From positions 1 through 47,009 of the forward strand of contig NZ_FNQE01000029.1 of NCBI RefSeq assembly GCF_900107485.1: a stretch of DNA of 47,009 bases, in the 5' to 3' direction. A program made the position numbers and the translations under genes. This stretch comes from Proteiniborus ethanoligenes (lineage in GTDB: Bacteria; Bacillota; Clostridia; Tissierellales; Proteiniboraceae). Shown piece after piece: positions 3,858 to 18,882 of the stretch (the stretch's first letter is position 1; every line of letters starts with the position of its first letter). Under the pieces are notes generated by a model, which saw only the letters and a program-made list of their open reading frames with translations, had not been told where the DNA came from and ran no database searches.

Positions 3858-5459
3858 ATGGAAATAGCTTTTGGTGTTTTGGGGGGATTGGGACTATTTT
3901 TATATGGAATGAATCTTATGGGGACAGGCCTTCAAAAAGCAGCTGGTCAAAAGCTCAAAAGGCTTATCGAAATATTGACGAGTAACAGATTTATGGGTGT
4001 TATTGTAGGTATTATTGTGACGGCAGTTATTCAAAGCAGTAGTGCTACTACTGTAATGGTTATAGGCTTTGTAAACGCAAGTTTAATGACATTAAGCCAG
4101 GCTGTAGGAGTAATAATGGGAGCAAACATAGGTACCACAGTAACAGCACAGCTTATAGCATTTAAGCTAAGCGATTATGCGCCTGTGGTTGTTGCCATAG
4201 GTGTGGCTATTTGGCTTTTTTCATCTAAGAAAAAGAATAAAGAAATTGCTGAAATCATGATAGGATTTGGTATTTTATTTATTGGTATGGATTTTATGAG
4301 TAGTCATCTAAAACCATTGAGCAATTCCCAAGTTTTTAATGATATATTAACTAGCTTAAAAAACCCTGTACTTGGGATAATTGTAGGATTTGGGATAACT
4401 ACTATAGTACAAAGCAGTAGTGCTTCTATAGGATTATTATTAGCACTAGCTAGTCAAGGTCTTTTAAGTATAGATATTGCACTTCCTATACTTTTTGGAG
4501 ATAACATAGGTACTACAACAACTGCACTTATATCAAGTATAGGAGCTAATAAAACAGCTAAAAGAGCGGCACTTATGCATTTCTTATTCAATGTAGTAGG
4601 CACTATTATATTTATGGTTGTATTAAGAAAGCCTGTAGAATCATTAGTAATTTATTTTTCACCTAACAATATAGAAAGACAAATTGCAAATGCACATACA
4701 TTGTTTAATGTTATTAATGTAGTTATTCAATTCCCGTTTGCTGGTCTGTTAGTTGTTATTGCTGAGAAGCTCATTAAAGGAGACGAAGAAAAGGTACAAG
4801 GTTTAAAATACTTAGACACAAGAATTATTGAAACACCATCCATAGCAGTAGGTCAAGCAGCTAAAGAGGTCCTAAGAATGGGTAGAATAGTTAGAGAGAA
4901 TCTAAGAACAGCAATTGAATCCTTCTACGCAAAAGACGAGAGCCTAACTCAAAAAGTGTTTGAGGAAGAAAAGCTTATTAACGAAATTGAAAGAGAGATA
5001 ACTAAATATTTAATCCAGCTTTCTCATGCGCCTCTTACAGATGCACAGCATGCAACAGTAACTACCTTGTTTCATGCAATCAATGATATAGAGCGTGTAG
5101 GAGACCATGCTGAAAATATAGCAGAGCTATCACAGACTAGAATAGATGAAAAGCTTTGGTTTACAGATATGGCTCTTGATGAACTTCATGTTATGTTTGA
5201 TAAGGTAGAGAATACATTCAGTAAATCCTTATTGGCCTTTAAAACTGCAGACCCTGTAATAGCAAATGAAGTAATAGATTTAGAGGCAGAGGTTGATATT
5301 ATGGAAAAGGAATACAGGGCTAGACATATTGAAAGACTAAACACTCAGTCATGCTCACCAAGCTCAGGTATAATATTTCTTGATATGATAAGCAATCTTG
5401 AAAGAATATCAGACCATTCTTCAAACATTGCTCTGTATATGTTAGATGCTCTAAAATAA
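3858..5459 (+). CDS. Na+/phosphate cotransporter family protein with C-terminal PhoU-like domain
   Basis: This is a 533-residue membrane protein starting at ATG 3858, which follows AGGAGG by a good spacing. An upstream in-frame ATG at 3810 lacks a site. It contains the duplicated NaPi-II signature: TAVIQSSSATTVMVIGF near residue 55 and TTIVQSSSASIGLLLA near residue 180. About eight membrane segments fill residues 1-310. Residues 340-530 form a helical PhoU-like region with ERVGDHAENIAEL and ERISDHSSNIALY repeats, which bind metal in PhoU proteins. It probably imports phosphate with sodium, with the PhoU part regulating uptake. It is monocistronic and followed by a terminator. Confidence 0.88.
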   Translation: MEIAFGVLGGLGLFLYGMNLMGTGLQKAAGQKLKRLIEILTSNRFMGVIVGIIVTAVIQSSSATTVMVIGFVNASLMTLSQAVGVIMGANIGTTVTAQLIAFKLSDYAPVVVAIGVAIWLFSSKKKNKEIAEIMIGFGILFIGMDFMSSHLKPLSNSQVFNDILTSLKNPVLGIIVGFGITTIVQSSSASIGLLLALASQGLLSIDIALPILFGDNIGTTTTALISSIGANKTAKRAALMHFLFNVVGTIIFMVVLRKPVESLVIYFSPNNIERQIANAHTLFNVINVVIQFPFAGLLVVIAEKLIKGDEEKVQGLKYLDTRIIETPSIAVGQAAKEVLRMGRIVRENLRTAIESFYAKDESLTQKVFEEEKLINEIEREITKYLIQLSHAPLTDAQHATVTTLFHAINDIERVGDHAENIAELSQTRIDEKLWFTDMALDELHVMFDKVENTFSKSLLAFKTADPVIANEVIDLEAEVDIMEKEYRARHIERLNTQSCSPSSGIIFLDMISNLERISDHSSNIALYMLDALK

Positions 5460-5495
5460 GAGATAAACCAGATAAGTTTATAGAAAATAACCAAA

Positions 5496-5532
5496 AAAAT
5501 CATTAAATATTAAAGATATTTAATGATTTTTT
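5496..5532 (+). terminator. Intrinsic terminator after the Na/Pi cotransporter gene
   Basis: A 15-base stem (AAAATCATTAAATAT with ATATTTAATGATTTT), a short loop and a trailing T run lie just after the stop codon. Confidence 0.8.
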
Positions 5533-5554
5533 AATAAAAAAGTGATAAAAAGTG

Positions 5555-5583
5555 TTGTATATAAAAAAAATATATATTATAAT
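5555..5583 (+). promoter_or_regulatory. Sigma-A promoter of the glycine reductase locus
   Basis: TTGTAT and a consensus TATAAT lie 17 bases apart. This places the transcript start near 5590, just ahead of the glycine riboswitch. Confidence 0.7.
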
Positions 5584-5644
5584 GTTCTTGAACAACAAGA
5601 TTGATTTTTATTTAACAATTCTATAATTAAATAAATGCTGAATG

Positions 5645-5820
5645 AAAAATGCGGAAGAGACCAATTAAATTTGGCGCCGAAGGAGTAAGTCATAAGTTTG
5701 CCATTTATGGAGAAGCTCTCAGGCAAAAGGACCGTATTTGGACAGTTCTCTGGAAAGCCTATGGCACCGAAGGGGCAATTCTTTAAAAAGAAGAATCTCT
5801 CAGGTTTAGAACAGAGTAGA
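5645..5820 (+). promoter_or_regulatory. Tandem glycine riboswitch
   Basis: Two glycine aptamers lie head to tail. Aptamer 1 has GCGGAAGAGACC, GGCGCCGAAGGAG and CTCTCAGGCAAAAGGACCG. Aptamer 2 has CTCTGGAAAGCC, GGCACCGAAGGGGCAA and TCTCTCAGGT, with a very short linker between them. These are the conserved core motifs of the gcvT-type motif. The closing helix of aptamer 2 uses CAGAG at 5812-5816, which is also the 5' arm of the terminator below. Glycine binding should therefore block termination and switch on grdX and the downstream glycine reductase genes. Confidence 0.93.
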
Positions 5821-5858
5821 GGGGCACATAATAATGTAAACTTCTATTCTGTTTTTTT
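5811..5858 (+). terminator. Riboswitch-controlled intrinsic terminator (expression platform)
   Basis: ACAGAGTAGAGG (5811-5822) pairs with CTTCTATTCTGT (5841-5852) and is followed by seven Ts. Its 5' arm overlaps the closing helix of the second glycine aptamer, so the two structures exclude each other. Confidence 0.8.
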
Positions 5859-5899
5859 GTCTCTAAATAATTGTATGTACATTATAAGGAGTGAAACCT

Positions 5900-6286
5900 A
5901 TGAGCTGTATTATATTTACGAATAACCCACTAATAAAAGATGTATTTTCTTCTACATATGAAATTCAGTTCTGCGAAAAGGACTATATAGGTGTTTTGGA
6001 AACTGTAAGAGACAAAATACATTTGGGTCATATACTTTTATCACATCCCCTAGCAGGCAGCATTAAGCCTAATGAAACTCCATATAGAACAATTCTTATT
6101 TCAAAAAATAAAAAAAACTTAGATTATAATTCGTTATCAATTATAGAGAGTGCCATAACCACTGCCAGAAAATTTATGGAGAACAAGATGACTCCAAATT
6201 GGACTGATATAGCACTTTTAGATTTCCAGACAGTAGATTTTTCACTAATAGAAGGTATTTTAAATAACATGACTAATTTTGAATAA
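5900..6286 (+). CDS. grdX: GrdX, conserved protein of glycine reductase loci
   Basis: This 128-residue cytoplasmic protein starts at ATG 5900 after an AAGGAG site. It shows the conserved GrdX stretches IIFTNNPLIKDVF, RDKIHLGHILLSHPLAGSIK and PNETPYRTILIS, and an acidic helical C-terminus with SLSIIESAITTARKF. The family is found beside glycine, sarcosine and betaine reductase genes, and its biochemical role is not established. Here it is the first gene after the glycine riboswitch and terminator, so it is the most directly glycine-controlled gene of the locus. Confidence 0.9.
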   Translation: MSCIIFTNNPLIKDVFSSTYEIQFCEKDYIGVLETVRDKIHLGHILLSHPLAGSIKPNETPYRTILISKNKKNLDYNSLSIIESAITTARKFMENKMTPNWTDIALLDFQTVDFSLIEGILNNMTNFE

Positions 6287-6319
6287 AACAGGGTAATTTT
6301 GGGTAAATTTTAGTTGCTG

Positions 6320-6341
6320 AACAGTATTATTTGCTACTGTT
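6320..6341 (+). other. Small hairpin before trxB
   Basis: AACAGTA pairs perfectly with TACTGTT across an 8-base loop in the grdX-trxB gap. A TATAAT at 6364-6369 follows, so a separate weak promoter for trxB is possible; no good -35 box is seen. Confidence 0.35.
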
Positions 6342-6395
6342 AACCACAATAGTAAATTGGGTATATAATAGTATAAAATTAAAGGAGTGACGCTA

Positions 6396-7340
6396 ATGGC
6401 AAATCTATACGATACTATAATAATCGGAGCAGGTCCAGCAGGTTTAGCAGCAGGATTATATGCGGCAAGAGCAAAAATGAAAACGCTTATTTTAGAAAGA
6501 GAAAAGGCTGGTGGTCAAATAGTTACTACTGAAGAAGTAGCCAACTACCCAGGCTCAGAAAAGGACGCTTCAGGCCCATCACTAGTTGCTAGAATGGTAG
6601 AACAAGCAGAAGAGTTTGGGGCAGAAAGGGTACTAGATGAAGTTAAAGAGGTTCAGTTAGAAGACAAAATTAAGATTGTTAAAGGAGCAAAAGGCGAATA
6701 TCACGCAAAATCAATAATAATTGCTACAGGAGCAAAGCCTAAGCTTATGGGATGTCCAGGAGAAAAAGAGCTTACTGGTAAGGGAGTTTCCTATTGCGCA
6801 ACTTGTGACGCAGATTTCTTTACTGATTTAGAAGTTTTTGTAATAGGTGGAGGAGATTCAGCTGTTGAAGAAGCAATGTATTTAACTAAATTTGCTAGAA
6901 AAGTGACTATTATTCATAGAAGAGATGAACTTAGAGCTGCTAAATCAATTCAAGAGAAGGCTTTTAAAAATGAAAAAATTGATTTTATATGGAATTCGGT
7001 AGTTAAGGAAGTTAAAGGCGATGGCATAGTAGAATCAATGATACTTACAAATAGAGTAACTGGAGAAGAAACAGAAATTTTTGCTAATGAAGATGATGGC
7101 ACTTTTGGTATATTTGTATTTGTAGGCTATGACCCAGTAACTTCATTGTTTGACGGCATGATAAACATGGAAAATGGTTATATTATTACAGATGATAATA
7201 TGAAAACTAATATACCGGGAGTATTTGCAGCTGGTGATTGCAGGGTTAAATCACTAAGACAAGTGGTTACAGCAACAGCAGATGGTGCTATAGCTGCTAC
7301 ACAAGCTGAAAAGTACATAGAAAGCGTTTTTGAGGAATAA
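6396..7340 (+). CDS. trxB: Thioredoxin-disulfide reductase (glycine reductase electron supply)
   Basis: This 314-residue flavoprotein is the standard low-molecular-weight TrxB length. It has the FAD-binding motif [19 protein letters not shown] at the N-terminus, the redox pair CATC at residues 134-137, the NADPH-binding motif [12 protein letters not shown], and the C-terminal FAD motif GVFAAGDCR. The start at ATG 6396 follows AAAGGAGTGA. It passes electrons from NADPH to the thioredoxin encoded 46 bases downstream. Its place between grdX and grdE indicates a dedicated supply of electrons to the glycine reductase selenoproteins. Confidence 0.95.
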
Positions 7341-7386: not shown

Positions 7387-7704
7387 ATGTTAGCTGTTGA
7401 CAAAGATACTTTTGAAGTTGAAGTACTTCAAGCAGAGGGACATGTTTTAGTTGATTTCTGGAGTGAAGGGTGTGAACCTTGTAAAGCCTTAATGCCACAT
7501 ATCATGGAGCTTTCAGAAAAATATGGTGATAAAGTTAAATTTACTAAACTTGACACAGGTAAAGCAAGAAGACTTGCTATTTCACAAAGAATATTAGGAT
7601 TGCCAGTTATAGCAATATACAAAGACGGTGAAAAAATTGACGAGTTAGTAAAGGACGATGCAACACCAGCCAATGTAGAGGCTATGATTCAAAAATATCT
7701 TTAA
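7387..7704 (+). CDS. trxA: Glycine-reductase-type thioredoxin with GCEPC active site
   Basis: This 105-residue thioredoxin fold starts after AGGAGGGATATGA. The family motif WCGPC is replaced by G-C-E-P-C, with redox cysteines at residues 29 and 32 ([13 protein letters not shown]). The cis-proline region [13 protein letters not shown] is present. Variant motifs of this kind are known from thioredoxins of glycine-reducing clostridia and are expected to change redox potential and partner choice. It would accept electrons from TrxB and reduce the selenoproteins GrdB and GrdA. Confidence 0.92.
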
Positions 7705-7765: not shown

Positions 7766-7811
7766 AATAAAACATGTCACATTAGTGAAATATCAAGAGG
7801 AGGTGAACTCT

Positions 7812-9098
7812 ATGCGCCTAGAAATAGGTAATATTATCATTAAGGATGTTCAATTTGGCGACAAAACAAAGGTAGAAAATGGTATTTTGTTTGTCAACAA
7901 GGAGGAGCTTATTGCAAGAATAAGCGATGATGACAACATTAAAAGTGTGGATGTAGAGTTGGCAAGACCAGGTGAAAGCGTAAGAATTACTCCTGTTAAG
8001 GACGTTATTGAACCGAGAGTTAAGGCTGAAGGTCCTGGTGGAATTTTCCCAGGAGTACTTTCTAAGGTTCAAACAGTTGGAACAGGTAGAACCCATGTGC
8101 TAAAAGGTGCAGCAGTTGTTACGACAGGAAAGGTGGTTGCATTCCAAGAAGGTATTATAGACATGACTGGACCTGGAGCAGATTACACACCATTCTCTCA
8201 AACTAATAATGTTGTTTTAGTTATTCAACCAAGAGATGGTTTAAAACAGCATGAGCATGAAAAAGCTATTAGATTTGCGGGATTAAAAGCTGCTGCTTAT
8301 CTTGGAGAAGCAGGTAAAGAAGTAACACCAAATGAAGTAAAGGTATATGAAACGCTACCATTACTTCAAGGAATTCAAAAATATCCTGAACTCCCAAAGG
8401 TAGCATATGTACTGATGCTTCAAAGCCAAGGCTTGATGCATGATACTTATGTTTATGGTGTTGACGCTAAACAAACCTTATCTACACTGATTTACCCAAC
8501 AGAGCTTTTAGATGGTGCTATCATAAGTGGTAACTGTGTTTCTGCTTGTGACAAGAATACTACTTATCACCACTTAAACAACCCAGTTGTTCACGACTTA
8601 TTTGAAAGACATGGAAAAGAACTAAACTTTGTTGGAGTAATTATAACAAATGAAAATGTTTACTTAGCGGATAAGGAAAGATCATCAGATTGGTCTGCAA
8701 AATTAGCAGAATATCTTGGTGTTGATGGTGTCATCATATCACAGGAAGGATTTGGAAATCCAGATACTGACTTAATCATGAACTGCAAAAAAATAGAACA
8801 AAAAGGCATAAAGACTGTAATCGTAACTGACGAATATGCAGGTAGAGATGGAGCATCTCAATCATTAGCTGATGCTGATCCGCTAGCAAATGCAGTTGTT
8901 ACAGGTGGAAATGCTAACGAAGTAATAGAACTACCAGCACTAGAAAAGGTTATTGGATATCTTGATCCAGTAAATACAATTGCTGGTGGATTTGATGGAA
9001 GTTTAAGAGAAGATGGTTCTATAGTAGTAGAGCTTCAAGCTATTACAGGTGCTACAAATGAGCTTGGCTTCAATAAACTAACAGCAAGAGGATTCTAA
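7812..9098 (+). CDS. grdE: Glycine reductase component B, alpha/beta precursor GrdE
   Basis: This 428-residue proprotein starts at ATG 7812 after AAGAGGAGGTGA. GrdE is known to cleave itself before a cysteine, producing two subunits and a catalytic pyruvoyl group that binds the amino group of glycine. The cleavage context is visible as IISGNCVSACDKN, with the candidate Cys at residue 242 after Asn241. The C-terminal part carries VIVTDEYAGRDGASQSLAD and GGNANEVIELP. Together with GrdB it forms component B. The length is normal for the family and nothing looks disrupted. Confidence 0.95.
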   Translation: MRLEIGNIIIKDVQFGDKTKVENGILFVNKEELIARISDDDNIKSVDVELARPGESVRITPVKDVIEPRVKAEGPGGIFPGVLSKVQTVGTGRTHVLKGAAVVTTGKVVAFQEGIIDMTGPGADYTPFSQTNNVVLVIQPRDGLKQHEHEKAIRFAGLKAAAYLGEAGKEVTPNEVKVYETLPLLQGIQKYPELPKVAYVLMLQSQGLMHDTYVYGVDAKQTLSTLIYPTELLDGAIISGNCVSACDKNTTYHHLNNPVVHDLFERHGKELNFVGVIITNENVYLADKERSSDWSAKLAEYLGVDGVIISQEGFGNPDTDLIMNCKKIEQKGIKTVIVTDEYAGRDGASQSLADADPLANAVVTGGNANEVIELPALEKVIGYLDPVNTIAGGFDGSLREDGSIVVELQAITGATNELGFNKLTARGF

Positions 9099-9143: not shown

Positions 9144-9620
9144 ATGGGACTATTTGATGGCAAAAAAGTTATCGTAATAGGCGATAGAGATGGTATACCA
9201 GCTCCAGCTGTCGAAGAATGTTTAAAGACGACTAACGCAGAAGTAGTTTTCGCATCTACAGAGTGTTTTGTCTGAACGGCTGCAGGAGCAATGGACCTAG
9301 AGAATCAACAAAGAGTTAAGGATTTAACAGAAAAGCACGGTGCAGAGAATATTATCGTTCTTTTAGGTGCTGCTGAAGGTGAAGCTGCAGGTTTAGCAGC
9401 TGAAACAGTTACAGCAGGAGATCCAACTTTTGCAGGTCCATTGGCAGGAGTCCAGTTAGGACTCAGAGTTTACCACGTTGTAGAACCAGAAGTTAAGGAT
9501 GAATTTGATGCAGACGTTTATGATGAGCAAATAGGCATGATGGAAATGGTTCTAGATGTTGATGAAATAATTGAAGAAGTAAGTTCAATAAGAAATGAAT
9601 ATGGAAAATTTAATGATTAA
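9144..9620 (+). CDS. grdA: Glycine reductase selenoprotein A (UGA = selenocysteine at residue 44)
   Basis: Reading the in-frame TGA at 9273-9275 as selenocysteine gives a 158-residue protein of exactly family type. It starts [17 protein letters not shown], has the redox centre ECFVU with Cys41 and Sec44, then [12 protein letters not shown]. The start at ATG 9144 follows AAAGGAAGTG. GrdA attacks the pyruvoyl-bound glycine imine product from component B, forming a carboxymethyl-selenoether that component C converts to acetyl phosphate. It lies 45 bases after grdE and 36 before grdB. A gene caller treating TGA as stop would miss the first 43 residues. Confidence 0.96.
9273..9275 (+). other. UGA selenocysteine codon of grdA
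   Basis: TGA stands in frame between GTC and ACG in the motif C-F-V-U-T. The flanking protein is conserved on both sides, so this is recoding and not a stop. I see no hairpin downstream as clear as the one in grdB. Confidence 0.93.
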
Positions 9621-9656: not shown

Positions 9657-10967
9657 ATGAGTAAAATAAAAGTTGTTCATTATATCAACCAATTCTTTGC
9701 TGGAATAGGTGGAGAAGAAAAGGCTGATTATAAACCAGAAGTAAGAGAAACAGTAGTTGGACCAGGAATGGCATTTAATCAAAGTTTTGGTGATGAAGCT
9801 GAAATAGTTGCAACAATTATTTGCGGTGACTCTTACTTTAACGAAAACCTAGAAGAAGCAAAAGCAGAAGTAATTAGCATGATTAAGAAATATAATCCAG
9901 ACTTATTCATTGCTGGACCAGCCTTTAATGCAGGTAGATATGGTGTTGCGTGTGGAACAATCACTGATGCTGTAAAAAATGAACTAGGAATCCCTGTTTT
10001 AACTGGTATGTACATTGAAAATCCTGGCGCTGATATGTTTAAGAAAAGTGTTTATATTGTAGAAACAAAAAATAATGCGGCAGGAATGAGATCAGCAGTA
10101 AAAGATATGGCAAAGTTAGCTCTTAAATTGGCTAAAGGTGAAGAAATAGGTTCACCAGCAGATGAAGGGTATATACCTAGAGGTATTAGAAGAAATGTTT
10201 TTGTTGATAAGAGAGGTTCTGAAAGAGCTGTTGACATGCTTATTAACAAGCTTAAAGGAGAAGAATTCGTTACAGAGTTCCCAATGCCTGATTTCGATAG
10301 AGTAGATCCAAATCCAGCAGTTAAAGATATTACTAAAGCTAAAATCGCCCTAGTAACTTCCGGCGGTATAGTTCCAAAAGGAAATCCTGATCATATTGAA
10401 TCTTCAAGTGCTTCTAAGTACGGAAAATATGATATTGCTGGAGTAGAAGATTTAACAGAAGAAACTTATGAAACAGCTCATGGTGGTTATGACCCTGTAT
10501 ATGCAAATATTGATGCTGACAGAGTTTTACCTGTAGATGTTCTTAGGGATCTAGAGAAGGAAGGAAAAATTGGAGAACTTCATAGATACTTCTACACTAC
10601 TGTAGGAAATGGTACAGCAGTTGCAAGCTCAAAAGCTTTTGCAGCAGAGTTTGCTAAAGAACTGAAAGCTGATGGCGTGGATGCAGTTATATTAACCTCC
10701 ACCTGAGGCACTTGTACACGTTGCGGTGCAACGATGGTTAAAGAAGTTGAGAGAGCAGGTATTCCAGTTGTTCATATGTGTACTGTAGTGCCAATCTCAT
10801 TGACTGTAGGTGCTAACAGAATAGTTCCAACTATAGCTATACCACATCCACTTGGGAATCCAAGCTTAGAGAAAGCAGAAGAAAAGAAATTAAGAAGAAA
10901 ATTAGTTGAAAAAGCACTAGAAGCTTTAACAACTGAAGTGGAAGGTCAAACAGTTTTTGATAAATAA
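9657..10967 (+). CDS. grdB: Glycine reductase component B gamma subunit, selenoprotein GrdB (Sec350)
   Basis: The full reading frame through TGA 10704-10706 gives 436 residues, normal for GrdB. It starts MSKIKVVHYINQFFAGIGGE after a GAGAGGGGGG site. The redox motif is TSTUGTCTRCGATMV with Sec350 and Cys353. GrdB carries the selenocysteine of the substrate-specific component B and, with pyruvoyl-containing GrdE, activates glycine for transfer to GrdA. ANIDADRVLPVDVLRDLEKE and the C-terminal VPISLTVGANRIVP are further family features. Ignoring recoding would split it into two false genes. Confidence 0.96.
10704..10706 (+). other. UGA selenocysteine codon of grdB
   Basis: In-frame TGA inside the conserved U-G-T-C redox motif, followed at the right distance by a SECIS-like hairpin (10719-10733). 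Confidence 0.95.
10719..10733 (+). other. Bacterial SECIS-like hairpin of grdB
   Basis: CGTTGC pairs perfectly with GCAACG around the loop GGT. The loop begins 18 bases after the UGA, the same distance as in the Escherichia coli fdhF element as I recall it, and carries the GGU that SelB recognises there. Confidence 0.7.
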
Positions 10968-10971
10968 TTGT

Positions 10972-11097
10972 GCTGGCTGCGATTCGCAGCTAGCAGTTGC
11001 AAAAGCAAATAAAAGGGTGGTGTTTATTCATCACCCTTTTATAAGCCATAGCTTAGTAGCTAAAGACTATTTATAGTATGTAGCTGCCAGCTGCGAG
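10972..11097. repeat. Small MITE/REP-like inverted-repeat element between grdB and grdC
   Basis: TTCGCAGCTAGCAGTTGC (10983-11000) and the complement of 11080-11097 (CTCGCAGCTGGCAGCTAC) match at 14 of 18 positions and face each other. The left end also forms its own palindrome GCTGCGATTCGCAGC (10976-10990). A terminator hairpin lies between the two arms. Confidence 0.4.
11011..11040 (+). terminator. Terminator-like hairpin after grdB
   Basis: AAAAGGGTGGTG pairs with CATCACCCTTTT through a 6-base loop. The 3' arm ends in Ts. It may lower expression of grdC and grdD relative to grdA and grdB. Confidence 0.65.
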
Positions 11098-11147
11098 TCA
11101 ATAACAATAAATAATAATAATTTTTAATTATTTTGGAGGTGAAGTGT

Positions 11148-12686
11148 ATGTCATTCCCAGTAGTAAAAGGTGCTGGTTACATACTAGCACACACACCAGA
11201 TATGGTATTACACAATGGTACAACACAAACTTCAGAAAGAGTTATCAATCCTAACTCAGATTATTTAAAAGAGCTCCCAAAGCATTTGCGTAGCTTTGAA
11301 GAAGTAGTAAGCTATCCACCTAACCAAACCTATATTGGGTCATTAAATCCACAAGAATTGGCAAAATATGAAATGCCATGGTATGACAAAAAAGTTGAGG
11401 GTGCTGAAAGATTTGGTGAGCTAGGAGAAATAATGCCTCAAGATGAATTCATAGGTCTAATGCAAATGAGCGATGCTTTCGACCTAGTTAAACTAGAAAA
11501 ATCTTTTGCAGAAAGTGTGAAAGCTAAGCTTGCTAAGCATCCATTAATAAGAGAAGAATTATTAGCTAAGCTTAAAGAAGGAGACTCAATAGAAGATATT
11601 AAAAAGCAAATAGATGAGTATCATGCAGAGGCTATTTACCATGACAATGAAATAGTTGGATGTGTAAAGAGAGCTCATGAAATAGATATTAATCTAAATG
11701 CTCATACAATATTTGAAAACTTAGTAGTTAAAGCATCTGGTGCTCTTGCACTAATGAATCTATTAGACAAAAATGGAATAGATGCAAATGATATAGAATA
11801 TGTAATTGAATGCTCTGAAGAAGCATGTGGAGATATGAATCAAAGAGGCGGAGGCAACTTTGCAAAGGCTATAGCAGAAATGGTAGGCTGTAACAATGCT
11901 ACTGGCTCAGATACTAGAGGATTTTGTGCAGCACCAACACACTCATTAATCGAAGCTGCTGCGCTAGTACAAGCGGGAGTATACCAAAATGTAGTTATTG
12001 TAGCAGGTGGAGCAACAGCTAAGCTAGGCATGAATGGTAAAGACCACGTTAAGAAAGGTTTACCTATACTAGAAGATGCAGTTGCAGGATTTGCAGTTTT
12101 AGTAAGCAAAAACGATGGAATAAATCCAATTTTAAGAACTGACTTAGTAGGTCGACATACTGTGGGTACAGGTTCTTCACCACAGGCTGTTATAACTTCA
12201 CTAATAACGACTCCATTAGATAAAGGAAACCTAAAGATAACTGATATAGATAAATACTCTGTTGAAATGCAAAACCCAGATATAACTAAACCAGCAGGAG
12301 CAGGAGATGTACCTGCTGCAAACTACAAAATGATAGCTGCACTTGGAGTAAAAAGAGGCGAGCTCGAAAGAGCAGATGTAGCAACCTTTGGAGATAAACA
12401 TGGTTTGCCAGGATGGGCTCCAACTCAAGGACACATTCCATCAGGAGTTCCGTATGTTGGATTTGGTAGAGAGGCTATGCTTAATGGAGAAATAGATAAA
12501 GCTATGATAGTTGGAAAAGGTAGCTTGTTCTTAGGACGTATGACAAATTTATTTGATGGCGTATCTATAGTTATGGAAAAGAACAGTGGAAAAGTTGAGG
12601 ATGCTAAAGGCGTTTCAGAAGAAGAGGTTAAAAAATTAGTAGCAGAGGCTATGAGAGAATTTGCGTCACATCTATTAGGAAATTAG
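11148..12686 (+). CDS. grdC: Glycine reductase component C beta subunit GrdC
   Basis: This 512-residue protein starts at ATG 11148 after TTGGAGGTGA. It has a thiolase/FabH-like core: SEEACGDMNQRGGG, GSDTRGFCAAPTHSLIEAAA with Cys260, and VVIVAGGATAKLGMNG. Component C accepts the carboxymethyl group carried on the GrdA selenocysteine and releases acetyl phosphate. GrdC pairs with GrdD, which begins 11 bases downstream. The beginning MSFPVVKGAGYILAHTPDMV is typical of the family and supports the chosen start. Confidence 0.94.
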   Translation: MSFPVVKGAGYILAHTPDMVLHNGTTQTSERVINPNSDYLKELPKHLRSFEEVVSYPPNQTYIGSLNPQELAKYEMPWYDKKVEGAERFGELGEIMPQDEFIGLMQMSDAFDLVKLEKSFAESVKAKLAKHPLIREELLAKLKEGDSIEDIKKQIDEYHAEAIYHDNEIVGCVKRAHEIDINLNAHTIFENLVVKASGALALMNLLDKNGIDANDIEYVIECSEEACGDMNQRGGGNFAKAIAEMVGCNNATGSDTRGFCAAPTHSLIEAAALVQAGVYQNVVIVAGGATAKLGMNGKDHVKKGLPILEDAVAGFAVLVSKNDGINPILRTDLVGRHTVGTGSSPQAVITSLITTPLDKGNLKITDIDKYSVEMQNPDITKPAGAGDVPAANYKMIAALGVKRGELERADVATFGDKHGLPGWAPTQGHIPSGVPYVGFGREAMLNGEIDKAMIVGKGSLFLGRMTNLFDGVSIVMEKNSGKVEDAKGVSEEEVKKLVAEAMREFASHLLGN

Positions 12687-12697
12687 AGGTGATATAA

Positions 12698-13882
12698 ATG
12701 TCAGAAAATATCAAAAATATAATAGGAAAAGTATTTAATGATATAGCAGATGCTGTAGAAACTGGACAATTTGGTCAAAGAGTAAAGGTGGGCATCACTG
12801 TATTGGGCAGCGAGCATGGTGTAGAAAACATCATAAAGGGAGCCGAGCTAGCTCAAAAAAGAAATTCTACAATTGAAGTGGTTCTAATTGGACCAAAGGT
12901 AGAAACAGAGCTTAAAATATATGAAGCTAATACAGAAGAAGAACAGCATAAGAGAATGGAAGAGCTTTTAGATAGTGGTGAAATTAAAAGTGCTGTTACA
13001 ATGCACTACACATTCCCATTAGGAGTATCTACTGTAGGTAGAGTAATTACACCGGGTAAAGGGAGAGAAATGTACCTAGCTACTACTACAGGGACTTCAT
13101 CTGCACATAGAGTAGAAGGCATGATAAAAAATGCTTTATATGGAATAATCACTGCAAAAGCAATGGGAATTAAAAACCCGACAGTAGGTCTTTTAAATGT
13201 AGATGGAGTAAGACAAGTTGAGAGAGCCTTAAATGAGCTAAAAGCCAATGGCTATGATTTTAGCTATGCTGAAACCATGAGATCAGATGGTGGTGCAGTT
13301 ATGAGAGGAAACGACTTATTAACAGGCACACCAGATGTAATGGTAACTGACTCATTAACTGGAAATCTACTTATGAAAATATTTTCATCATACTCTACAG
13401 GTGGAGATTATGAAGCTTTAGGCTTTGGATATGGACCTGGTATTGGGGAGGATTATGAGAGAACTATCCTTATATTATCAAGGGCATCAGGAGTTCCAGT
13501 TGTAGCCAATGCAATAGAGTTCGCTGGTGAGCTTGCAAAAGGCAAGGTTGATAAAATATCAAAAGAAGAGTTTGCTAAAGCAAACAGTGCAAAGCTTCAA
13601 GACATTCTGAAAGGCTTAAAAAAGGATAACAAAAAAGAAAGCTCCGATGAGCAAATGGAAGTAGTGGCTCCTGATAAAGAAATAGTAACAGGTTCAATCT
13701 CAGGAGTAGACATCATGGAGCTAGAAGACGCAGTTATTGAGTTATGGAAAAAAGGCATATATGCTGAAAGTGGAATGGGCTGTACTGGTCCAATAGTAAT
13801 GGTTAATGAGGCTAAGGTGGATCTTGCAGTTGAAGTTCTTACAAAGGCAGGATATATTGCAGAAGGCTCAAACCCATGTTAA
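12698..13882 (+). CDS. grdD: Glycine reductase component C alpha subunit GrdD
   Basis: This 394-residue protein has a PlsX/phosphotransacetylase-like fold and starts after AGAGGTGA. VGITVLGSEHGVENIIKGAE at the start and GFGYGPGIGEDYERTILILS in the middle are family features. The C-terminal ESGMGCTGPIVMVNEAKV contains Cys362, the likely site of the acetyl thioester before phosphorolysis. With GrdC it makes acetyl phosphate, which acetate kinase then uses to form ATP. It is the last gene of the cluster; a long palindrome follows. Confidence 0.94.
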   Translation: MSENIKNIIGKVFNDIADAVETGQFGQRVKVGITVLGSEHGVENIIKGAELAQKRNSTIEVVLIGPKVETELKIYEANTEEEQHKRMEELLDSGEIKSAVTMHYTFPLGVSTVGRVITPGKGREMYLATTTGTSSAHRVEGMIKNALYGIITAKAMGIKNPTVGLLNVDGVRQVERALNELKANGYDFSYAETMRSDGGAVMRGNDLLTGTPDVMVTDSLTGNLLMKIFSSYSTGGDYEALGFGYGPGIGEDYERTILILSRASGVPVVANAIEFAGELAKGKVDKISKEEFAKANSAKLQDILKGLKKDNKKESSDEQMEVVAPDKEIVTGSISGVDIMELEDAVIELWKKGIYAESGMGCTGPIVMVNEAKVDLAVEVLTKAGYIAEGSNPC

Positions 13883-14111: not shown

Positions 14112-15194
14112 ATGACAAAAAAATTACTAGCATTAACATTAGTAACTGTTTTAGTGTTATCCTTAGCAATCGGATGTACTCCAAAAACAGAACAACCAGC
14201 ACAACCAGATCAATCAAATGAACAACCTGGAGATAATCAAGCTCAACCAGAAGCTCCTAAAGATGATAAGAAATTTGTAGTAGGTATGATAACAGATACG
14301 GGTGGATTAGGTGACCAATCATTTAACGATTCAGCTTGGGCTGGACTTAAAAAAGCAGAATCAGAATTAGGCGTAGAAGCAAAGGTTTTAGAGTCACAAT
14401 CAGCTGATGACTATGGCCCAAACCTAACTAGCTTCTCAGAATCAGGTGCAGACCTAGTAATAGGAGTAGGATTCCTATTTGAGGAAAGCATGAAGGCTGC
14501 AGCAGAACAGTTCCCACAGCAAAAATTTGCAGTGGTTGACACTGTTATAGATGCTCCAAACGTAGCATCACTTACATTTGCTAACCACGAAGGTTCATAC
14601 CTAGTAGGTGTAGCAGCAGGATTAACTACAAAATCCAATAAAATAGGCTTTATTGGTGGTATGAAATTCCCTCTAATCGAAGAATTTGAGTATGGATTTA
14701 GAGCTGGAGTAAAAGCAGTTAATCCAAATGCAGAAGTATTTGTTCAATATGCAGATTCATTTGATGACTCAGCAAAAGGTAAAGAAATAGCACTTGCTCA
14801 ACATCAAATGGGTGCAGACGTTATATATCATGCTGCAGGTGGAGTTGGCGTTGGATTAATGCAAGCAGCTGAAGAAAAAGGCTTCTGGGCAATAGGAGTT
14901 GACCAAGACCAATCAGCATTAGCTCCAGAGCATGTTCTATGTTCAGCAATTAAGAGAGTTGATACATCTACATTTGAAATAACTAAAACTGCTAAAGAAG
15001 GAACATTTGAAGGCGGTAAAGTGTACACATTTGATGTTAGCAACGATGGTATGGGATATAGTGACAATGCAGGCAACTTACCAGAAGATGTTAAGGCTAT
15101 AATGGAAACACATAAACAAGCTATAATCGATGGCAAAATAGTTGTTCCTAAGATAGAAGCAGAATTTACAGCTTTTGAAGCGCCACAATTATAA
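14112..15194 (+). CDS. BMP-family nucleoside-binding lipoprotein
   Basis: This 360-residue lipoprotein has a signal peptide ending in the lipobox LAIGC (Cys near residue 22). A linker rich in Gln, Pro and Asp follows to about residue 55, then a type I periplasmic-binding domain starting KFVVGMITDTGGLGDQSFND. That opening is typical of basic-membrane-protein binders such as NupN, PnrA and BmpA, which bind purine nucleosides. GGVGVGLMQAAEEKGFWAIG and IGVDQDQSALAPEHV are further family features. It would deliver nucleosides to the ATPase and permeases encoded downstream. A hairpin between it and the ATPase gene suggests that it is made in excess. Confidence 0.9.
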   Translation: MTKKLLALTLVTVLVLSLAIGCTPKTEQPAQPDQSNEQPGDNQAQPEAPKDDKKFVVGMITDTGGLGDQSFNDSAWAGLKKAESELGVEAKVLESQSADDYGPNLTSFSESGADLVIGVGFLFEESMKAAAEQFPQQKFAVVDTVIDAPNVASLTFANHEGSYLVGVAAGLTTKSNKIGFIGGMKFPLIEEFEYGFRAGVKAVNPNAEVFVQYADSFDDSAKGKEIALAQHQMGADVIYHAAGGVGVGLMQAAEEKGFWAIGVDQDQSALAPEHVLCSAIKRVDTSTFEITKTAKEGTFEGGKVYTFDVSNDGMGYSDNAGNLPEDVKAIMETHKQAIIDGKIVVPKIEAEFTAFEAPQL

Positions 15195-15247
15195 TATCCA
15201 TATTATATAATATTGAAAATAGGATATAAAAAAAGTATAATCATACT

Positions 15248-15280
15248 AGGTCAGGTGTTAAACCATCTGACCTTTATTTT
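15248..15280 (+). terminator. Attenuating terminator between binding protein and ATPase genes
   Basis: AGGTCAGGTG (15248-15257) pairs with CATCTGACCT (with one G-T pair), and TTTATTTT follows. Partial termination here would give more lipoprotein than ATPase. Confidence 0.75.
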
Positions 15281-15295
15281 CTATAAAAGGAGGGA

Positions 15296-16822
15296 ATGAG
15301 CTTGGACTATGTAGTAGAGATGAAGAATATTACCAAAATATTTCCTGGAGTAGTAGCTAATGACAATGTGGATTTCACATTAAAAAAAGGGGAAACACAT
15401 GTATTATTAGGAGAAAACGGCGCAGGTAAAACTACTCTAATGAATATATTGTACGGTCTATATTTACCTACATCGGGAGAAATCTATATTCATGGTGAAA
15501 AAGTCAGCATCGATAACCCTAATATAGCAATTGAAAAAGGTATAGGGATGGTACATCAACATTTCATGCTTGTTCAACCATTTACTATTGCCGAAAACAT
15601 AATACTCGGTACAGAGCCTTCGAAGTTTTTTGGTCTTAATCTAGATATGAAAAAGGCTATTGAAGATGTAATAGAAATATCCGACAAATATGGACTAGCA
15701 GTGGATCCAAATGCAAAGATTCAAGATATTAGTGTAGGCATGCAGCAAAGAGTTGAGATATTAAAAGCTCTTTATAGAGGAGCGGACATTTTAATATTAG
15801 ACGAACCAACTGCTGTTCTTACTCCTCAAGAAATTGATGAACTAGGAGTAATATTAGACAATTTGAAGAATCAAGGCAAATCAATTATTTTGATTACCCA
15901 CAAGCTTAAAGAAGTAATGACTATGAGTGACAGAGTTACAGTTATTAGGAGAGGCAAGGTAATAGGTACACTTAATACCCAAGACACAAATACCGATGAA
16001 TTAGCAGAATTCATGGTAGGTAGAAAAGTAAATCTAGTGGTAGAAAAAGAAGATAAAGAACCTGGAGATGTAATACTTGAGGTTAAAAACCTAGAAGCTT
16101 TAGATAATAGACATTTACCAGCTTTAAAGGGATTAAGCTTTAATGTAAGGGCAGGAGAAATACTTGCTATAGCTGGAGTAGATGGTAATGGACAAACAGA
16201 GCTTGTAGAAGTTCTTACGCACCTTAGAAAAGCAAAGTCAGGAATCATAGAACTGAATGGAAAAGATATTGCTAAATGTAGTACAAAGGAAATTATAGAT
16301 ATTGGCGTAGGTCATATACCAGAGGATAGACACAAAAGAGGATTAGTCTTAAACCACTCTCTTGCAGAAAATATGATATTAGGAAATCACAGAGAAGAAC
16401 CTTATAGCAAAAATGGTATTATGGATTATAAAAAGATTCATGAGCATGCACTAGAGTTGATTAAAGAATTTGACGTAAGAACACCTAATGAAGAAGTTGC
16501 GGCAAAATCTCTATCAGGTGGTAATCAGCAAAAGGTAATTATAGCGAGAGAAATCAACAGAGATCCAATGTTATTAATTGCTTCCCAGCCTACTAGGGGA
16601 CTTGATGTTGGAGCTATTGAATTTGTTCATAGAAGAATTGTTGAACAAAGAAATAGAGGAAAGGCTGTTTTACTAGTTTCCCTAGAGCTAGATGAGGTTA
16701 TGGCACTAGCAGATAGAATAGCAGTTATTTATGATGGAAACATAGTAGGAATTGTAGATTCTAAGGATGCTACGGAAAGAAAGCTAGGTATAATGATGGC
16801 TGGAGGTAAAGCTGATGACTAG
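15296..16822 (+). CDS. Nucleoside ABC transporter ATP-binding protein (double ATPase)
   Basis: This 508-residue protein has two fused ABC domains. The first has Walker A GENGAGKTT, Q-loop MVHQHFM, and Walker B ILILDEPTAVLTPQE. The second has a divergent Walker A GVDGNGQTE, signature LSGGNQQK, and a Walker-B position reading LLIASQPTRGLDVGA, with Ser-Gln in place of Asp-Glu as is usual for this subfamily. It resembles NupO of the B. subtilis NupNOPQ nucleoside importer. It starts after AAAAGGAGGGA and would power the two permeases that follow. Confidence 0.92.
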   Translation: MSLDYVVEMKNITKIFPGVVANDNVDFTLKKGETHVLLGENGAGKTTLMNILYGLYLPTSGEIYIHGEKVSIDNPNIAIEKGIGMVHQHFMLVQPFTIAENIILGTEPSKFFGLNLDMKKAIEDVIEISDKYGLAVDPNAKIQDISVGMQQRVEILKALYRGADILILDEPTAVLTPQEIDELGVILDNLKNQGKSIILITHKLKEVMTMSDRVTVIRRGKVIGTLNTQDTNTDELAEFMVGRKVNLVVEKEDKEPGDVILEVKNLEALDNRHLPALKGLSFNVRAGEILAIAGVDGNGQTELVEVLTHLRKAKSGIIELNGKDIAKCSTKEIIDIGVGHIPEDRHKRGLVLNHSLAENMILGNHREEPYSKNGIMDYKKIHEHALELIKEFDVRTPNEEVAAKSLSGGNQQKVIIAREINRDPMLLIASQPTRGLDVGAIEFVHRRIVEQRNRGKAVLLVSLELDEVMALADRIAVIYDGNIVGIVDSKDATERKLGIMMAGGKADD

Positions 16823-16843
16823 TGAGAATAGAGAGGTGAGAAA

Positions 16844-17950
16844 ATGAATAGTAAAGACAGTAAACTTAAGATTTTTTTTGATAATGTAAAGTTTCCTGCA
16901 TTTGCTGTACTTATATCATTCGTAATTGGAGCTATATTTATAGTGATTTCAGGTAACAGTCCATTAGTAGCATATGGAGCGCTTTTTAGCGGTAGCTTTG
17001 GTAGCATACCTGTTTTTGGAGAAACATTGTTGAAAACTACTCCCCTTATATTTACTGGACTTGCAATAGCTTTTGCATTTAGATGTGGTTTATTTAATAT
17101 TGGTGCCGAAGGCCAGTATATTGCTGGAGCTATATCAACTGTAGCTGTAGCTTTTGTATTCCAAAACTTACCACATTTCCTTCTTGTTCCACTGATTTTT
17201 TTAGCTGGAGCACTTGGAGGGGCATTGTGGGCTTCTATAGTAGGATTTTTAAAATCTAAACTTGGAATACATGAGGTTATTACTAGTATAATGCTAAACT
17301 ATACAGCTATGTTTGTGGGGAACTATTTTATTAGAACTATTTTGAACCCTTCTACACTAGAAGGCAGTGCACAAAAAGCGCACACTGTATTATTACCGCA
17401 AGCAGCAAGGCTTACAAAGTTTAAGGATTTATTTCCTTCAATATTTGGACACTCAAGTGTAAATACAAGCTTAATAGTAGCCATACTATGTGCTTTTGTT
17501 GCATATTTTATTTTATTTAAAACTACATTAGGTTACGAAATACGTTCTGTTGGGCAGAGTCCATTTGCAGCAGAATATGGCGGTATAAGCATAACTAAAA
17601 ACCTGATTATATCAATGCTTATATCTGGTGCTTTTGCTGGGTTAGCAGGAACAGCACAGGTTGCAGGCTTGACTTATAAAGTAGATATGGCACCAGCTCT
17701 ACCAGGATATGGGTTTACAGGTATAGCAGTAGCTTTAGTAGGAAAGAATCATCCAATTGGTGTATTAGTAAGTGCTCTCCTTTTTGGAATACTTAGTAAT
17801 GGAGAAAGAAGAATGCAAATTGCTGGTATTCCAAAGGAAATCGTAGGAATAATTCAAGGAGTTATTATAATTTTCATCGCAGGCGAACAAATTGTAAAAA
17901 TTATATCTAAGCACAGAGAAAAAAAGAATAAAACTGAGGAGGTGGCATAA
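16844..17950 (+). CDS. Nucleoside ABC transporter permease (NupP-like)
   Basis: This 368-residue membrane protein of the BPD_transp_2 family has roughly eight to ten hydrophobic segments. FAFRCGLFNIGAEGQYIAGA near residue 75 and LGYEIRSVGQSPFAAEYGGI near residue 225 are typical; the latter is the cytoplasmic loop that contacts the ATPase. It begins 21 bases after the ATPase stop and overlaps the next gene by one base, so it is translationally coupled to its partner permease. Confidence 0.9.
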   Translation: MNSKDSKLKIFFDNVKFPAFAVLISFVIGAIFIVISGNSPLVAYGALFSGSFGSIPVFGETLLKTTPLIFTGLAIAFAFRCGLFNIGAEGQYIAGAISTVAVAFVFQNLPHFLLVPLIFLAGALGGALWASIVGFLKSKLGIHEVITSIMLNYTAMFVGNYFIRTILNPSTLEGSAQKAHTVLLPQAARLTKFKDLFPSIFGHSSVNTSLIVAILCAFVAYFILFKTTLGYEIRSVGQSPFAAEYGGISITKNLIISMLISGAFAGLAGTAQVAGLTYKVDMAPALPGYGFTGIAVALVGKNHPIGVLVSALLFGILSNGERRMQIAGIPKEIVGIIQGVIIIFIAGEQIVKIISKHREKKNKTEEVA

Positions 17951-18882
17951 TGCTTTTTATAATACTAGCTATACTTGCTTCAGCATTAAGACTAGCAACA
18001 CCTCTAATCTTTGCATCCTTAGGAGGAGTATTCTCCGAGAGATCAGGAGTTTTCAACATAGCCTTAGAAGGTATTATGATAATGGGGGCATTTTTTGCAG
18101 TTTTAACCACTCATTTTACCAACTCACCTTGGCTTGGTGTGCTAACTGCAATAATTGTAGGCATTATTACCTCTTTACTACTTGCTGTATTAGCAATACA
18201 TTTAAAAGCAGACCAAACTATTACAGGGGTAGCTATTAACCTTTTGGCTACAAGTTTGACAGCATATTTGCTAGAAATTATATGGCATAGATCAGGACAA
18301 ACTGACCCATTACAAAATAAAATGTTATCTAAAAACTTATTCCTAGGGCTTGAAAAAATACCTGTATTAGGAAGCTTTTTTGCACAATTACCTGTGTTTG
18401 TATATATGGCATTTATAATGGTTGCTGTGTCATACTATGTATTGTGGAAAACACCTTTTGGATTAAGGGTTAGATCAGTAGGAGAACATCCAAGAGCAGC
18501 AGATACAGTTGGTATAAATGTATATAAGACAAGATATATTTGTGTAATGATAAGTGGAGCTTTAGCAGGGCTTGCAGGAGCTTCTCTATCATTAGGCGCT
18601 GTAAACCTTTTTAGAGAAGGAATGACTGCTGGAAAAGGTTTTATAGCTATAGCAGCTATGATATTTGGTAAGTGGCATCCAGTAGGAGCTATGCTAGCAA
18701 GCATTTTCTTTGGGCTTACAGAAGCTATACAGATACAAGCATCTATGCTAGGCTTAAAGGTGCCATCAGAATTTTTACAGGCATTGCCATATATAGCAAC
18801 TATCCTTGCTCTCGTAGGAGTAGTTGGTAGAGCTGTAGGACCAGCAGCAGGCGGTAAGCCTTATGATAAAGGTGAAAAGTAA
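17950..18882 (+). CDS. Nucleoside ABC transporter permease (NupQ-like)
   Basis: This 310-residue BPD_transp_2 permease begins in the overlap TAATG with the previous gene. Family features are GVFSERSGVFNIALEGIMIM near residue 25 and FGLRVRSVGEHPRAADTVGI near residue 175. It forms the second half of the membrane channel. The last residues GPAAGGKPYDKGEK are hydrophilic and cytoplasmic. It closes the four-gene importer. Confidence 0.9.
   Translation: MLFIILAILASALRLATPLIFASLGGVFSERSGVFNIALEGIMIMGAFFAVLTTHFTNSPWLGVLTAIIVGIITSLLLAVLAIHLKADQTITGVAINLLATSLTAYLLEIIWHRSGQTDPLQNKMLSKNLFLGLEKIPVLGSFFAQLPVFVYMAFIMVAVSYYVLWKTPFGLRVRSVGEHPRAADTVGINVYKTRYICVMISGALAGLAGASLSLGAVNLFREGMTAGKGFIAIAAMIFGKWHPVGAMLASIFFGLTEAIQIQASMLGLKVPSEFLQALPYIATILALVGVVGRAVGPAAGGKPYDKGEK

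What the first reader, a model, noticed from the sequence alone, without database searches (positions are those of the whole stretch)
5555..6286. Glycine riboswitch ahead of the whole glycine reductase cluster, with overlapping terminator
The closing helix of the second aptamer and the terminator use the same bases (5812-5816). This predicts an ON switch in which glycine turns on its own reductive fermentation, whereas in many bacteria the riboswitch controls glycine cleavage.
Basis: partly seen in the sequence, partly recalled or inferred. Interest (0 to 1): 0.6.

Follow-up and report, generated by a model that had tools for sequence, protein, structure and literature searches.

The report
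Glycine ON-switch before glycine reductase
An RNA element that senses glycine sits at the head of the genes for fermenting glycine and, by its anatomy, should stop their transcription unless glycine is present; the same arrangement is already known in another clostridial bacterium, so this is a well-supported but ordinary find.

Summary
Rfam finds two glycine aptamers in tandem (RF00504, 5642-5744 and 5746-5818). A 15-bp hairpin (5808-5822/5841-5855) is followed by a T-run to 5858. Aptamer 2's closing strand CAGAG (5812-5816) can pair either with CUCUG 5748-5752 or inside that hairpin. Downstream on the same strand lie grdX, trxB, trxA, grdE, grdA, grdB, grdC and grdD; GrdB passes the glycine-specific model.

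Comparison supports function. Of 131 grdX loci examined, 61 have a glycine aptamer upstream; in all 61 a terminator stem shares closing-strand bases, in 59 beyond shuffles. In an overlapping set of 80 named-genome loci, 39 have an aptamer and 37 of those share beyond shuffles. Terminator arms covary.

A transcriptional glycine ON switch is the best reading; nothing was measured. It is not new: a glycine riboswitch ahead of grd, inferred ON, is published for Clostridioides difficile. The one C. difficile locus read here has a single aptamer; the window's is tandem. The same genome carries another tandem before gcvT.

The parts
5495..5531 (.). hairpin (arms 5495-5510 / 5516-5531) flanked by A/T runs; likely terminator of the upstream Na/Pi-symporter gene, separating it from the riboswitch
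   Evidence: read by eye in the sequence, not scored; upstream gene identified
5555..5583 (+). promoter: TTGTAT 5555-5560, 17-nt spacer, TATAAT 5578-5583
   Evidence: TTGT and TATTATAAT retained in both same-genus genomes; not in the list of the consensus scan, whose -35 rule it misses
5638..5645 (+). leader half of the leader-linker kink-turn: CUG 5638-5640, 3-nt bulge, GA 5644-5645; partner in the linker is GGACAG 5740-5745
   Evidence: helix also in the fold; of 61 grdX loci 50 could be scored and 46 of these keep all 3 pairs, in several compensatory forms
5642..5744 (+). glycine aptamer 1 (P1 AAAUGCGG 5647-5654 / CCGUAUUU 5732-5739)
   Evidence: RF00504 69.1 bits
5746..5818 (+). glycine aptamer 2; closing helix P1 CUCUG 5748-5752 / CAGAG 5812-5816
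   Evidence: RF00504 39.5 bits, 49 bits as 5740-5824; fold
5808..5858 (+). intrinsic terminator: stem 5808-5822 / 5841-5855, T-run 5852-5858; its 5' arm contains CAGAG 5812-5816 of aptamer 2 P1
   Evidence: -20.7 kcal/mol; 0 of 60 shuffles; covariation in relatives
5887..5891 (+). Shine-Dalgarno AGGAG before the grdX ATG at 5900
   Evidence: sequence
5900..6286 (+). grdX
   Evidence: NF038093 135.4 bits against cut-off 40
6387..7340 (+). trxB, thioredoxin reductase
   Evidence: TIGR01292 383.3 bits against cut-off 343.45
7387..7704 (+). trxA, clostridial thioredoxin
   Evidence: NF047697 167.7 bits against cut-off 140
7785..9098 (+). grdE (component B alpha subunit; best model is the sarcosine paralogue GrdG, below its cut-off)
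   Evidence: NF040793 684.9 bits, cut-off 780 not reached; the name grdE rests on position between trxA and grdA and on recall
9144..9620 (+). grdA, selenoprotein A, in-frame TGA at codon 44
   Evidence: NF040748 279.5 bits against cut-off 130
9657..10967 (+). grdB, selenoprotein B, TGA at codon 350 followed by SECIS_4 10707-10744
   Evidence: TIGR01917 788.5 bits against cut-off 602.2; SECIS_4 64.9 bits
11133..12686 (+). grdC (component C beta; ORF as listed from a TTG, probable ATG at 11148)
   Evidence: NF040746 835.9 bits against cut-off 450; ATG
12698..13882 (+). grdD (component C alpha)
   Evidence: NF040747 599.9 bits against cut-off 350

Best explanation
A tandem glycine riboswitch of the transcription-terminating, glycine-ON type controls the glycine reductase operon. 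Transcription starts about 5590. RNA polymerase makes leader, aptamer 1, linker and aptamer 2; leader and linker form a short kink-turn helix. With glycine bound, the closing helix of aptamer 2 (5748-5752 with 5812-5816) is held, the 5' arm of the terminator is not free, and polymerase reads through into grdX-trxB-trxA-grdE-grdA-grdB-grdC-grdD. Without glycine, 5812-5816 are taken by the more stable terminator hairpin and transcription stops near 5858. Shown here: the aptamers, the exclusive pairings, the gene order and their conservation. Inferred: glycine as ligand, the sign of the response, the start site, and that one transcript spans the cluster.
For: RF00504 matches over the gathering score for both aptamers. 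The RNA up to 5824 folds on its own into both aptamers, a leader-linker helix and aptamer 2 P1; extended to 5860 the terminator state is -67.4 kcal/mol against -58.9 with P1 enforced, so P1 should need ligand to win. A stem ending at a T-run shares bases with the closing strand in 61 of 61 aptamer-bearing grdX loci (4 or 5 bases in 59, 2 in 2), and in 59 of 61 at most 3 of 60 shuffles reach the real score; this script accepted only stems sharing at least 2 bases, but an earlier one without that demand gave the same sharing in all 57 loci it could anchor, of 61. In the named set 38 of 39 share, 37 at that shuffle level. In 45 distinct arm pairs the five positions just past CAGRG are paired in 206 of 225 cells, against mean 154 and maximum 172 in 500 swaps of 3' arms between loci. 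Leader-linker helix intact in 46 of 50 loci scored, of 61. Three diagnostic core stretches read as RF00504, not as the variant RF03166. Component B specific for glycine by GrdB. Published glycine-ON behaviour of the B. subtilis gcvT switch through a terminator (passages) and of grd in C. difficile (review passages).
Against: No binding, termination or expression datum exists here for this organism. Fold energies ignore ligand, kinetics and tertiary contacts. Aptamer 2 is the weaker one: its J3/1 stretch departs from the CAAAAGGAC that 22 of 29 parsed loci keep in aptamer 1, so it may bind glycine poorly. Aptamer 1 has one A where the RF00504 consensus has a conserved G (alignment). Two named loci break the pattern: L241 (22 of 60 shuffles reach its stem) and L220 (no CAGRG-anchored stem). 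Two of the 61 are also weak, L147 and L156 (5 of 60 shuffles each). 70 of 131 grdX loci showed no aptamer upstream, so the arrangement is not essential to grd. A possible trxB promoter and a hairpin between grdB and grdC could uncouple parts of the cluster.
Confidence: 0.9

Rival explanations
1. OFF switch: glycine binding promotes the terminator, as glycine riboswitches ahead of AGCS transporters are reported to act.
For: Glycine riboswitches with the opposite sign exist ahead of transporters (review passages).
Against: The terminator arm contains the closing-helix strand itself, and the fold shows no separate antiterminator; grd transcription rises with glycine in C. difficile (review passages). 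Aptamer 1 is the better kept one in the 29 of 61 grdX loci parsed, the pattern Crum et al. 2019 report for glycine-cleavage switches rather than transporter switches (passages); but this is a soft argument, since in the gcvT switch of this very genome aptamer 2 scores higher (58.4 against 49.6 bits).
Confidence: 0.03
2. The aptamers sense another ligand (a variant class such as RF03166, glycine-GGAnGA, or a related amino acid).
For: RF03166 outscores single RF00504 matches in a permissive scan, 88 bits, and is the match listed in 20 of 20 other grdX loci scanned.
Against: 88 is below its gathering score of 110, and the 20 loci score 60 to 97.7; the model spans both aptamers, and the gcvT switch of the same genome scores 99.5 on it. 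In three stretches where the RF03166 consensus clearly departs from RF00504 (one in aptamer 1, two in aptamer 2; compared by eye) the window has the RF00504 letters. Of 29 grdX tandems parsed, 0 have the variant aptamer-1 signature, 1 has ACG in the aptamer-2 core and 0 the other aptamer-2 signature. The operon degrades glycine.
Confidence: 0.04
3. The riboswitch governs only grdX (or only part of the cluster), the catalytic genes having their own promoter before trxB.
For: TTAACC, 18 nt, TATAAT at 6340-6369 scores 10 of 12. Both same-genus genomes keep a like pair at that place: TTAGCC-16-TATAAT and TTAACC-15-TATAAT.
Against: The spacing shrinks to 15 and 16 nt in the congeners; promoter-like sites in 4800-7000 are no more frequent than in shuffles, 10 against 8.6 with sd 2.0; in C. 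difficile trxA3B3 are reported as part of the grd operon (passages).
Confidence: 0.15
4. The overlap of closing helix and terminator is a coincidence of an A/T-rich leader.
For: CAGAG is short.
Against: Shuffle tests in 61 and 39 loci, and covariation.
Confidence: 0.01

Closest known systems
Glycine riboswitch of the Clostridioides difficile grd operon (CD2357-48)
   Same: Glycine aptamer ahead of grdX, with a terminator arm sharing the CAGRG strand (one locus, L239); described as upstream of the grd operon, trxA3B3 included, and inferred to be an ON switch (PMC11477304, passages; PMC10880999, passages).
   Different: In the one C. difficile locus read here only one aptamer reaches the Rfam cut-off, followed by a short CUCUG...CAGGG hairpin where aptamer 2 would be; the window has two full aptamers.
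Bacillus subtilis gcvT tandem glycine riboswitch
   Same: Two aptamers, leader-linker kink-turn, terminator that forms without glycine, ON switch (PMC5666159, passages).
   Different: Controls the oxidative glycine cleavage system, not the reductive selenoenzyme.
Tandem riboswitch before gcvT in the same genome (G000 C8:70457-70650)
   Same: Two aptamers over the cut-off, and a terminator that pairs AGAG of the CAGAG strand (4 of 5 bases).
   Different: Different operon (gcvT); aptamer scores are reversed, the second being the stronger (58.4 against 49.6 bits).
Type-1 singlet glycine riboswitch with ghost aptamer
   Same: The same kind of expression platform is present in 4 of the 61 grdX loci, which have a short hairpin in place of aptamer 2 (L146, L147, L150, L152); the type is described in PMC6944388 (passages).
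   Different: The window has a full second aptamer.

Membership tests
Glycine riboswitch (RF00504), tandem type | Two aptamers each over the family gathering score, close together on one strand | tested here: met
   69.1 and 39.5 bits against 32; 69.1 and 49 bits
Glycine riboswitch (RF00504), tandem type | Leader-linker kink-turn helix | tested here: met
   CUG/CAG plus GA steps; 46 of 50 scored grdX loci keep 3 pairs
Glycine riboswitch (RF00504), tandem type | Binds glycine | not testable with these tools
   sequence core only
Glycine-ON transcription-terminating expression platform (B. subtilis gcvT type) | Closing helix of aptamer 2 and terminator 5' arm mutually exclusive | tested here: met
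   5812-5816
Glycine-ON transcription-terminating expression platform (B. subtilis gcvT type) | Read-through rises with glycine | not testable with these tools
   needs a transcription assay
glycine-GGAnGA variant (RF03166) | Score at or above gathering score 110 | tested here: not met
   88 bits
Glycine reductase operon | GrdA and GrdB selenoproteins with in-frame TGA, and GrdC, GrdD over curated cut-offs | tested here: met
Glycine reductase operon | Component B specific for glycine, not sarcosine or betaine | tested here: met
   GrdB over the TIGR01917 cut-off and under those of GrdF and GrdH; the component B alpha subunit is under the GrdG cut-off; substrate not assayed
Glycine reductase operon | Genes cotranscribed from the riboswitch promoter | not testable with these tools
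   possible promoter before trxB and hairpin between grdB and grdC

The most novel reading that the evidence does not exclude
One conserved glycine-ON module, with the strand CAGRG shared by closing helix and terminator, was kept ahead of grd while the sensor around it changed: tandem in 57 of the 61 loci seen in this order, reduced to one aptamer plus a ghost hairpin in the other 4 and in the C. difficile locus, and doubled to two complete tandem units in series in two genomes. Together with the gcvT switch of the same genome it would let the cell set the split of glycine between oxidation and reduction by two glycine thresholds.
Probability: 0.3. Interest if true: 0.4.

Novelty: new member of a known kind. 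Interest (0 to 1): 0.25.

Why it matters
It gives comparative support, across many clostridial genomes, to a regulatory link that in the papers found here is described for C. difficile: glycine itself licenses its own reductive fermentation. It also supplies a natural series (single, tandem, double tandem) on one operon for asking what the second glycine aptamer adds.

Tried and rejected
The mechanical terminator scan found nothing because of its loop limit; the stem was shown by folding. My first overlap script left 4 of 61 loci without an anchor, because the pattern demanded a purine before ACAG and a T-run of four; the corrected script anchored all 61. The corrected script, and that, accepted only stems that share at least 2 bases with CAGRG, so the sharing count by itself is partly built in and the shuffles carry the test; one search had no such demand. 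In one search the best of several possible anchors was taken per locus, which favours a match. The script for the leader-linker helix took the best of overlapping candidates and could not score 11 of 61 loci. The R1 model was built from aptamers that include the window's and some grdX-linked ones, so those match by construction; it reports mostly one aptamer per tandem because its flanks overlap, and second aptamers were read by motif. The script comparing the two aptamers parsed 29 of 61 loci, and its two tally patterns for J3/1 were not equally strict, so only exact motif counts from it are used. A permissive Rfam scan of 20 grdX loci, meant to compare aptamer scores, gave only RF03166 matches below its cut-off; this led to the variant test. 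The weak lncRNA match (18 bits, cut-off 70) is taken as chance. A search for copies of the grdB-grdC spacer found only itself. The original C. difficile glycine study (Rizvi 2023) is not held, so it is cited through the review. The 2013 C. difficile regulatory-RNA paper mentions glycine once, in a table.

Limits: the 131 grdX loci are the window, 30 loci returned and 100 further rows chosen mostly in score order; later listed rows (second copies and low-scoring genomes) and unlisted ones were not fetched. Upstream reach was about 800 nt for most and less where contigs end. The named set of 80 (best 80 of 494) overlaps this set. Loci are related, so counts are not independent. Why 70 of 131 grdX loci lack an aptamer upstream was not pursued.

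Full report
What is there. The leader between the Na/Pi-symporter gene (ends 5459) and grdX (ATG 5900) holds a promoter (TTGTAT 5555-5560, 17 nt, TATAAT 5578-5583), two glycine aptamers, and an intrinsic terminator with its T-run ending at 5858.

Fold. RNA from 5590 to 5824, that is before the 3' arm of the terminator is made, folds without any constraint into aptamer 1, a leader-linker helix and aptamer 2 with its closing helix; the RNA to 5860 prefers the terminator (-67.4 kcal/mol) over the state with the closing helix enforced (-58.9). This is the expected balance for a switch in which the ligand must hold the closing helix during transcription. These are secondary-structure energies only.

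Genes. On the same strand follow grdX, trxB, trxA, grdE, the selenoprotein genes grdA and grdB, grdC and grdD. GrdB read through its TGA scores 788.5 bits on the glycine-specific equivalog model (cut-off 602.2) and stays under the sarcosine and betaine cut-offs. A SECIS_4 element follows the grdB TGA. The name grdE rests on position and recall; its best model is the sarcosine paralogue, below cut-off.

Relatives. In 199 genomes of the order, GrdX occurs in 127 and RF00504 in 127 (not the same 127: for example G014 has only RF00504 and G030 only GrdX). I examined the upstream side of 131 grdX loci (window, 30, 100) with a covariance model built from 27 aptamers. 61 of 131 have an aptamer there at E up to 0.05. 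In all 61 a stem ending at a T-run shares bases with the CAGRG strand: 4 or 5 bases in 59, 2 bases in 2; in 59 of 61 at most 3 of 60 shuffles reach the real score, the exceptions being L147 and L156 with 5 of 60. That script demanded at least 2 shared bases; the earlier one, without the demand, found the same in 57 of the 57 loci that it could anchor. 57 of 61 have a full second aptamer core, 4 have a short hairpin in its place. In named genomes 39 of the 80 best grdX loci have an aptamer; 38 of 39 have a sharing stem and 37 pass the shuffle level; L220 has none by this test and L241 is no better than chance. This set overlaps the first.

Covariation. Among 45 distinct pairs of terminator arms, offsets 5-9 from the start of CAGRG are paired in 206 of 225 cells, while swapping 3' arms between loci gives mean 154 and at most 172 in 500 swaps. 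The stems were chosen for pairing, which inflates the real figure somewhat against the swaps; several standard pair types occur at one position (C-G, U-A, G-C, A-U at offset 5). The leader-linker triplet is fully paired in 46 of the 50 loci that my pattern could score, as CUG/CAG (21), UUG/CAA (21), CCA/UGG (2), AUG/CAU (1) and a G-U form (1).

Ligand. A variant class with a similar tandem layout, RF03166, scores 88 bits, below its cut-off of 110; the gcvT riboswitch of the same genome scores 99.5 on it. In three stretches where the two consensus sequences clearly differ, compared by eye, the window carries the RF00504 letters; elsewhere aptamer 1 has one A where RF00504 has a conserved G. In the 29 of 61 loci parsed, aptamer 1 keeps CAAAAGGAC in J3/1 in 22, while in aptamer 2 the commonest form is UUUAGAACA in 6. 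Crum et al. 2019 report that aptamer 1 is the better conserved one in riboswitches of glycine cleavage genes and aptamer 2 in those of transporters (PMC6944388, passages); the grd switches follow the catabolic pattern. Against a simple reading of this, in the gcvT switch of the same genome aptamer 2 scores higher than aptamer 1.

Same genome, other operon. RF00504 has four matches in the genome: these two and a tandem on contig 8, which precedes gcvT (NF001567 487.2 bits, cut-off 300; TIGR00528 438.8, cut-off 235.85). Its terminator pairs four of the five CAGAG bases (sequence). So oxidation and reduction of glycine both appear to be glycine-induced.

What is known. A 2024 review lists glycine riboswitches in C. 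difficile before gcv, a symporter and the grd operon, and infers an ON switch at grd because glycine raises its transcription (PMC11477304, passages). A 2024 paper on thioredoxin systems states the same and places trxA3B3 in the grd operon (PMC10880999, passages). The B. subtilis gcvT switch is the experimental model of a glycine-ON terminator (PMC5666159, passages). Searches for 'glycine riboswitch' with 'glycine reductase', 'Stickland' plus 'difficile', 'grdA' or 'selenoprotein' plus 'reductase', and for 'riboswitch' with 'grdX' and 'glycine', list eight different papers: these two, and six whose riboswitch passages name none ahead of grd. Subscription papers are mostly not in that library. 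The finding is therefore a new member of a known kind.

Caveats on 'whole cluster'. Before trxB a promoter-like TTAACC-18-TATAAT is present, and both congeners keep a like pair at spacings 16 and 15. Between grdB and grdC a 14-nt inverted repeat with 6 nt between the arms, 11009-11042, resembles a terminator. Either could modify control of downstream genes.

Noticed in passing
L143 (G005) 179-717 and L137 (G065, - strand) 420-876: Two complete tandem glycine riboswitches in series, four aptamers and two terminators, ahead of grdX. By eye, each unit in L143 has its own promoter-like pair, in L137 only the first. Quadruplet glycine aptamers are described in general in PMC9481103 section 22 (read whole), which does not name grd.
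   Followed up: partly
G000 contig 8, 70457-70650 (L003 1501-1700): Second tandem glycine riboswitch of this genome, ahead of gcvT, with a terminator sharing four of five CAGAG bases.
   Followed up: partly
L239 1789-1960 (Clostridioides difficile): The grd riboswitch there shows a single aptamer plus a short ghost-like hairpin, not a tandem.
   Followed up: partly
L232 (record titled Calditrichales bacterium): Two glycine aptamers and an overlapping terminator ahead of grdX in a record labelled as a different phylum; transfer or an assembly or labelling error.
   Followed up: no
10967-11132: Spacer between grdB and grdC with a terminator-like hairpin 11009-11042 enclosed by a 21-nt inverted repeat, 81% complementary; no other copy of the 138-nt stretch in the genome.
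   Followed up: partly
6340-6369: Promoter-like site before trxB; similar pairs at shorter spacing in both congeners.
   Followed up: partly
14112-18882: BMP-type ABC transporter (binding protein, ATPase, two permeases) after grdD; binding protein and ATPase best match a putative B6 transporter, below cut-off.
   Followed up: no
131 grdX loci: 70 of 131 grdX loci have no aptamer found upstream; how those are regulated is open.
   Followed up: no
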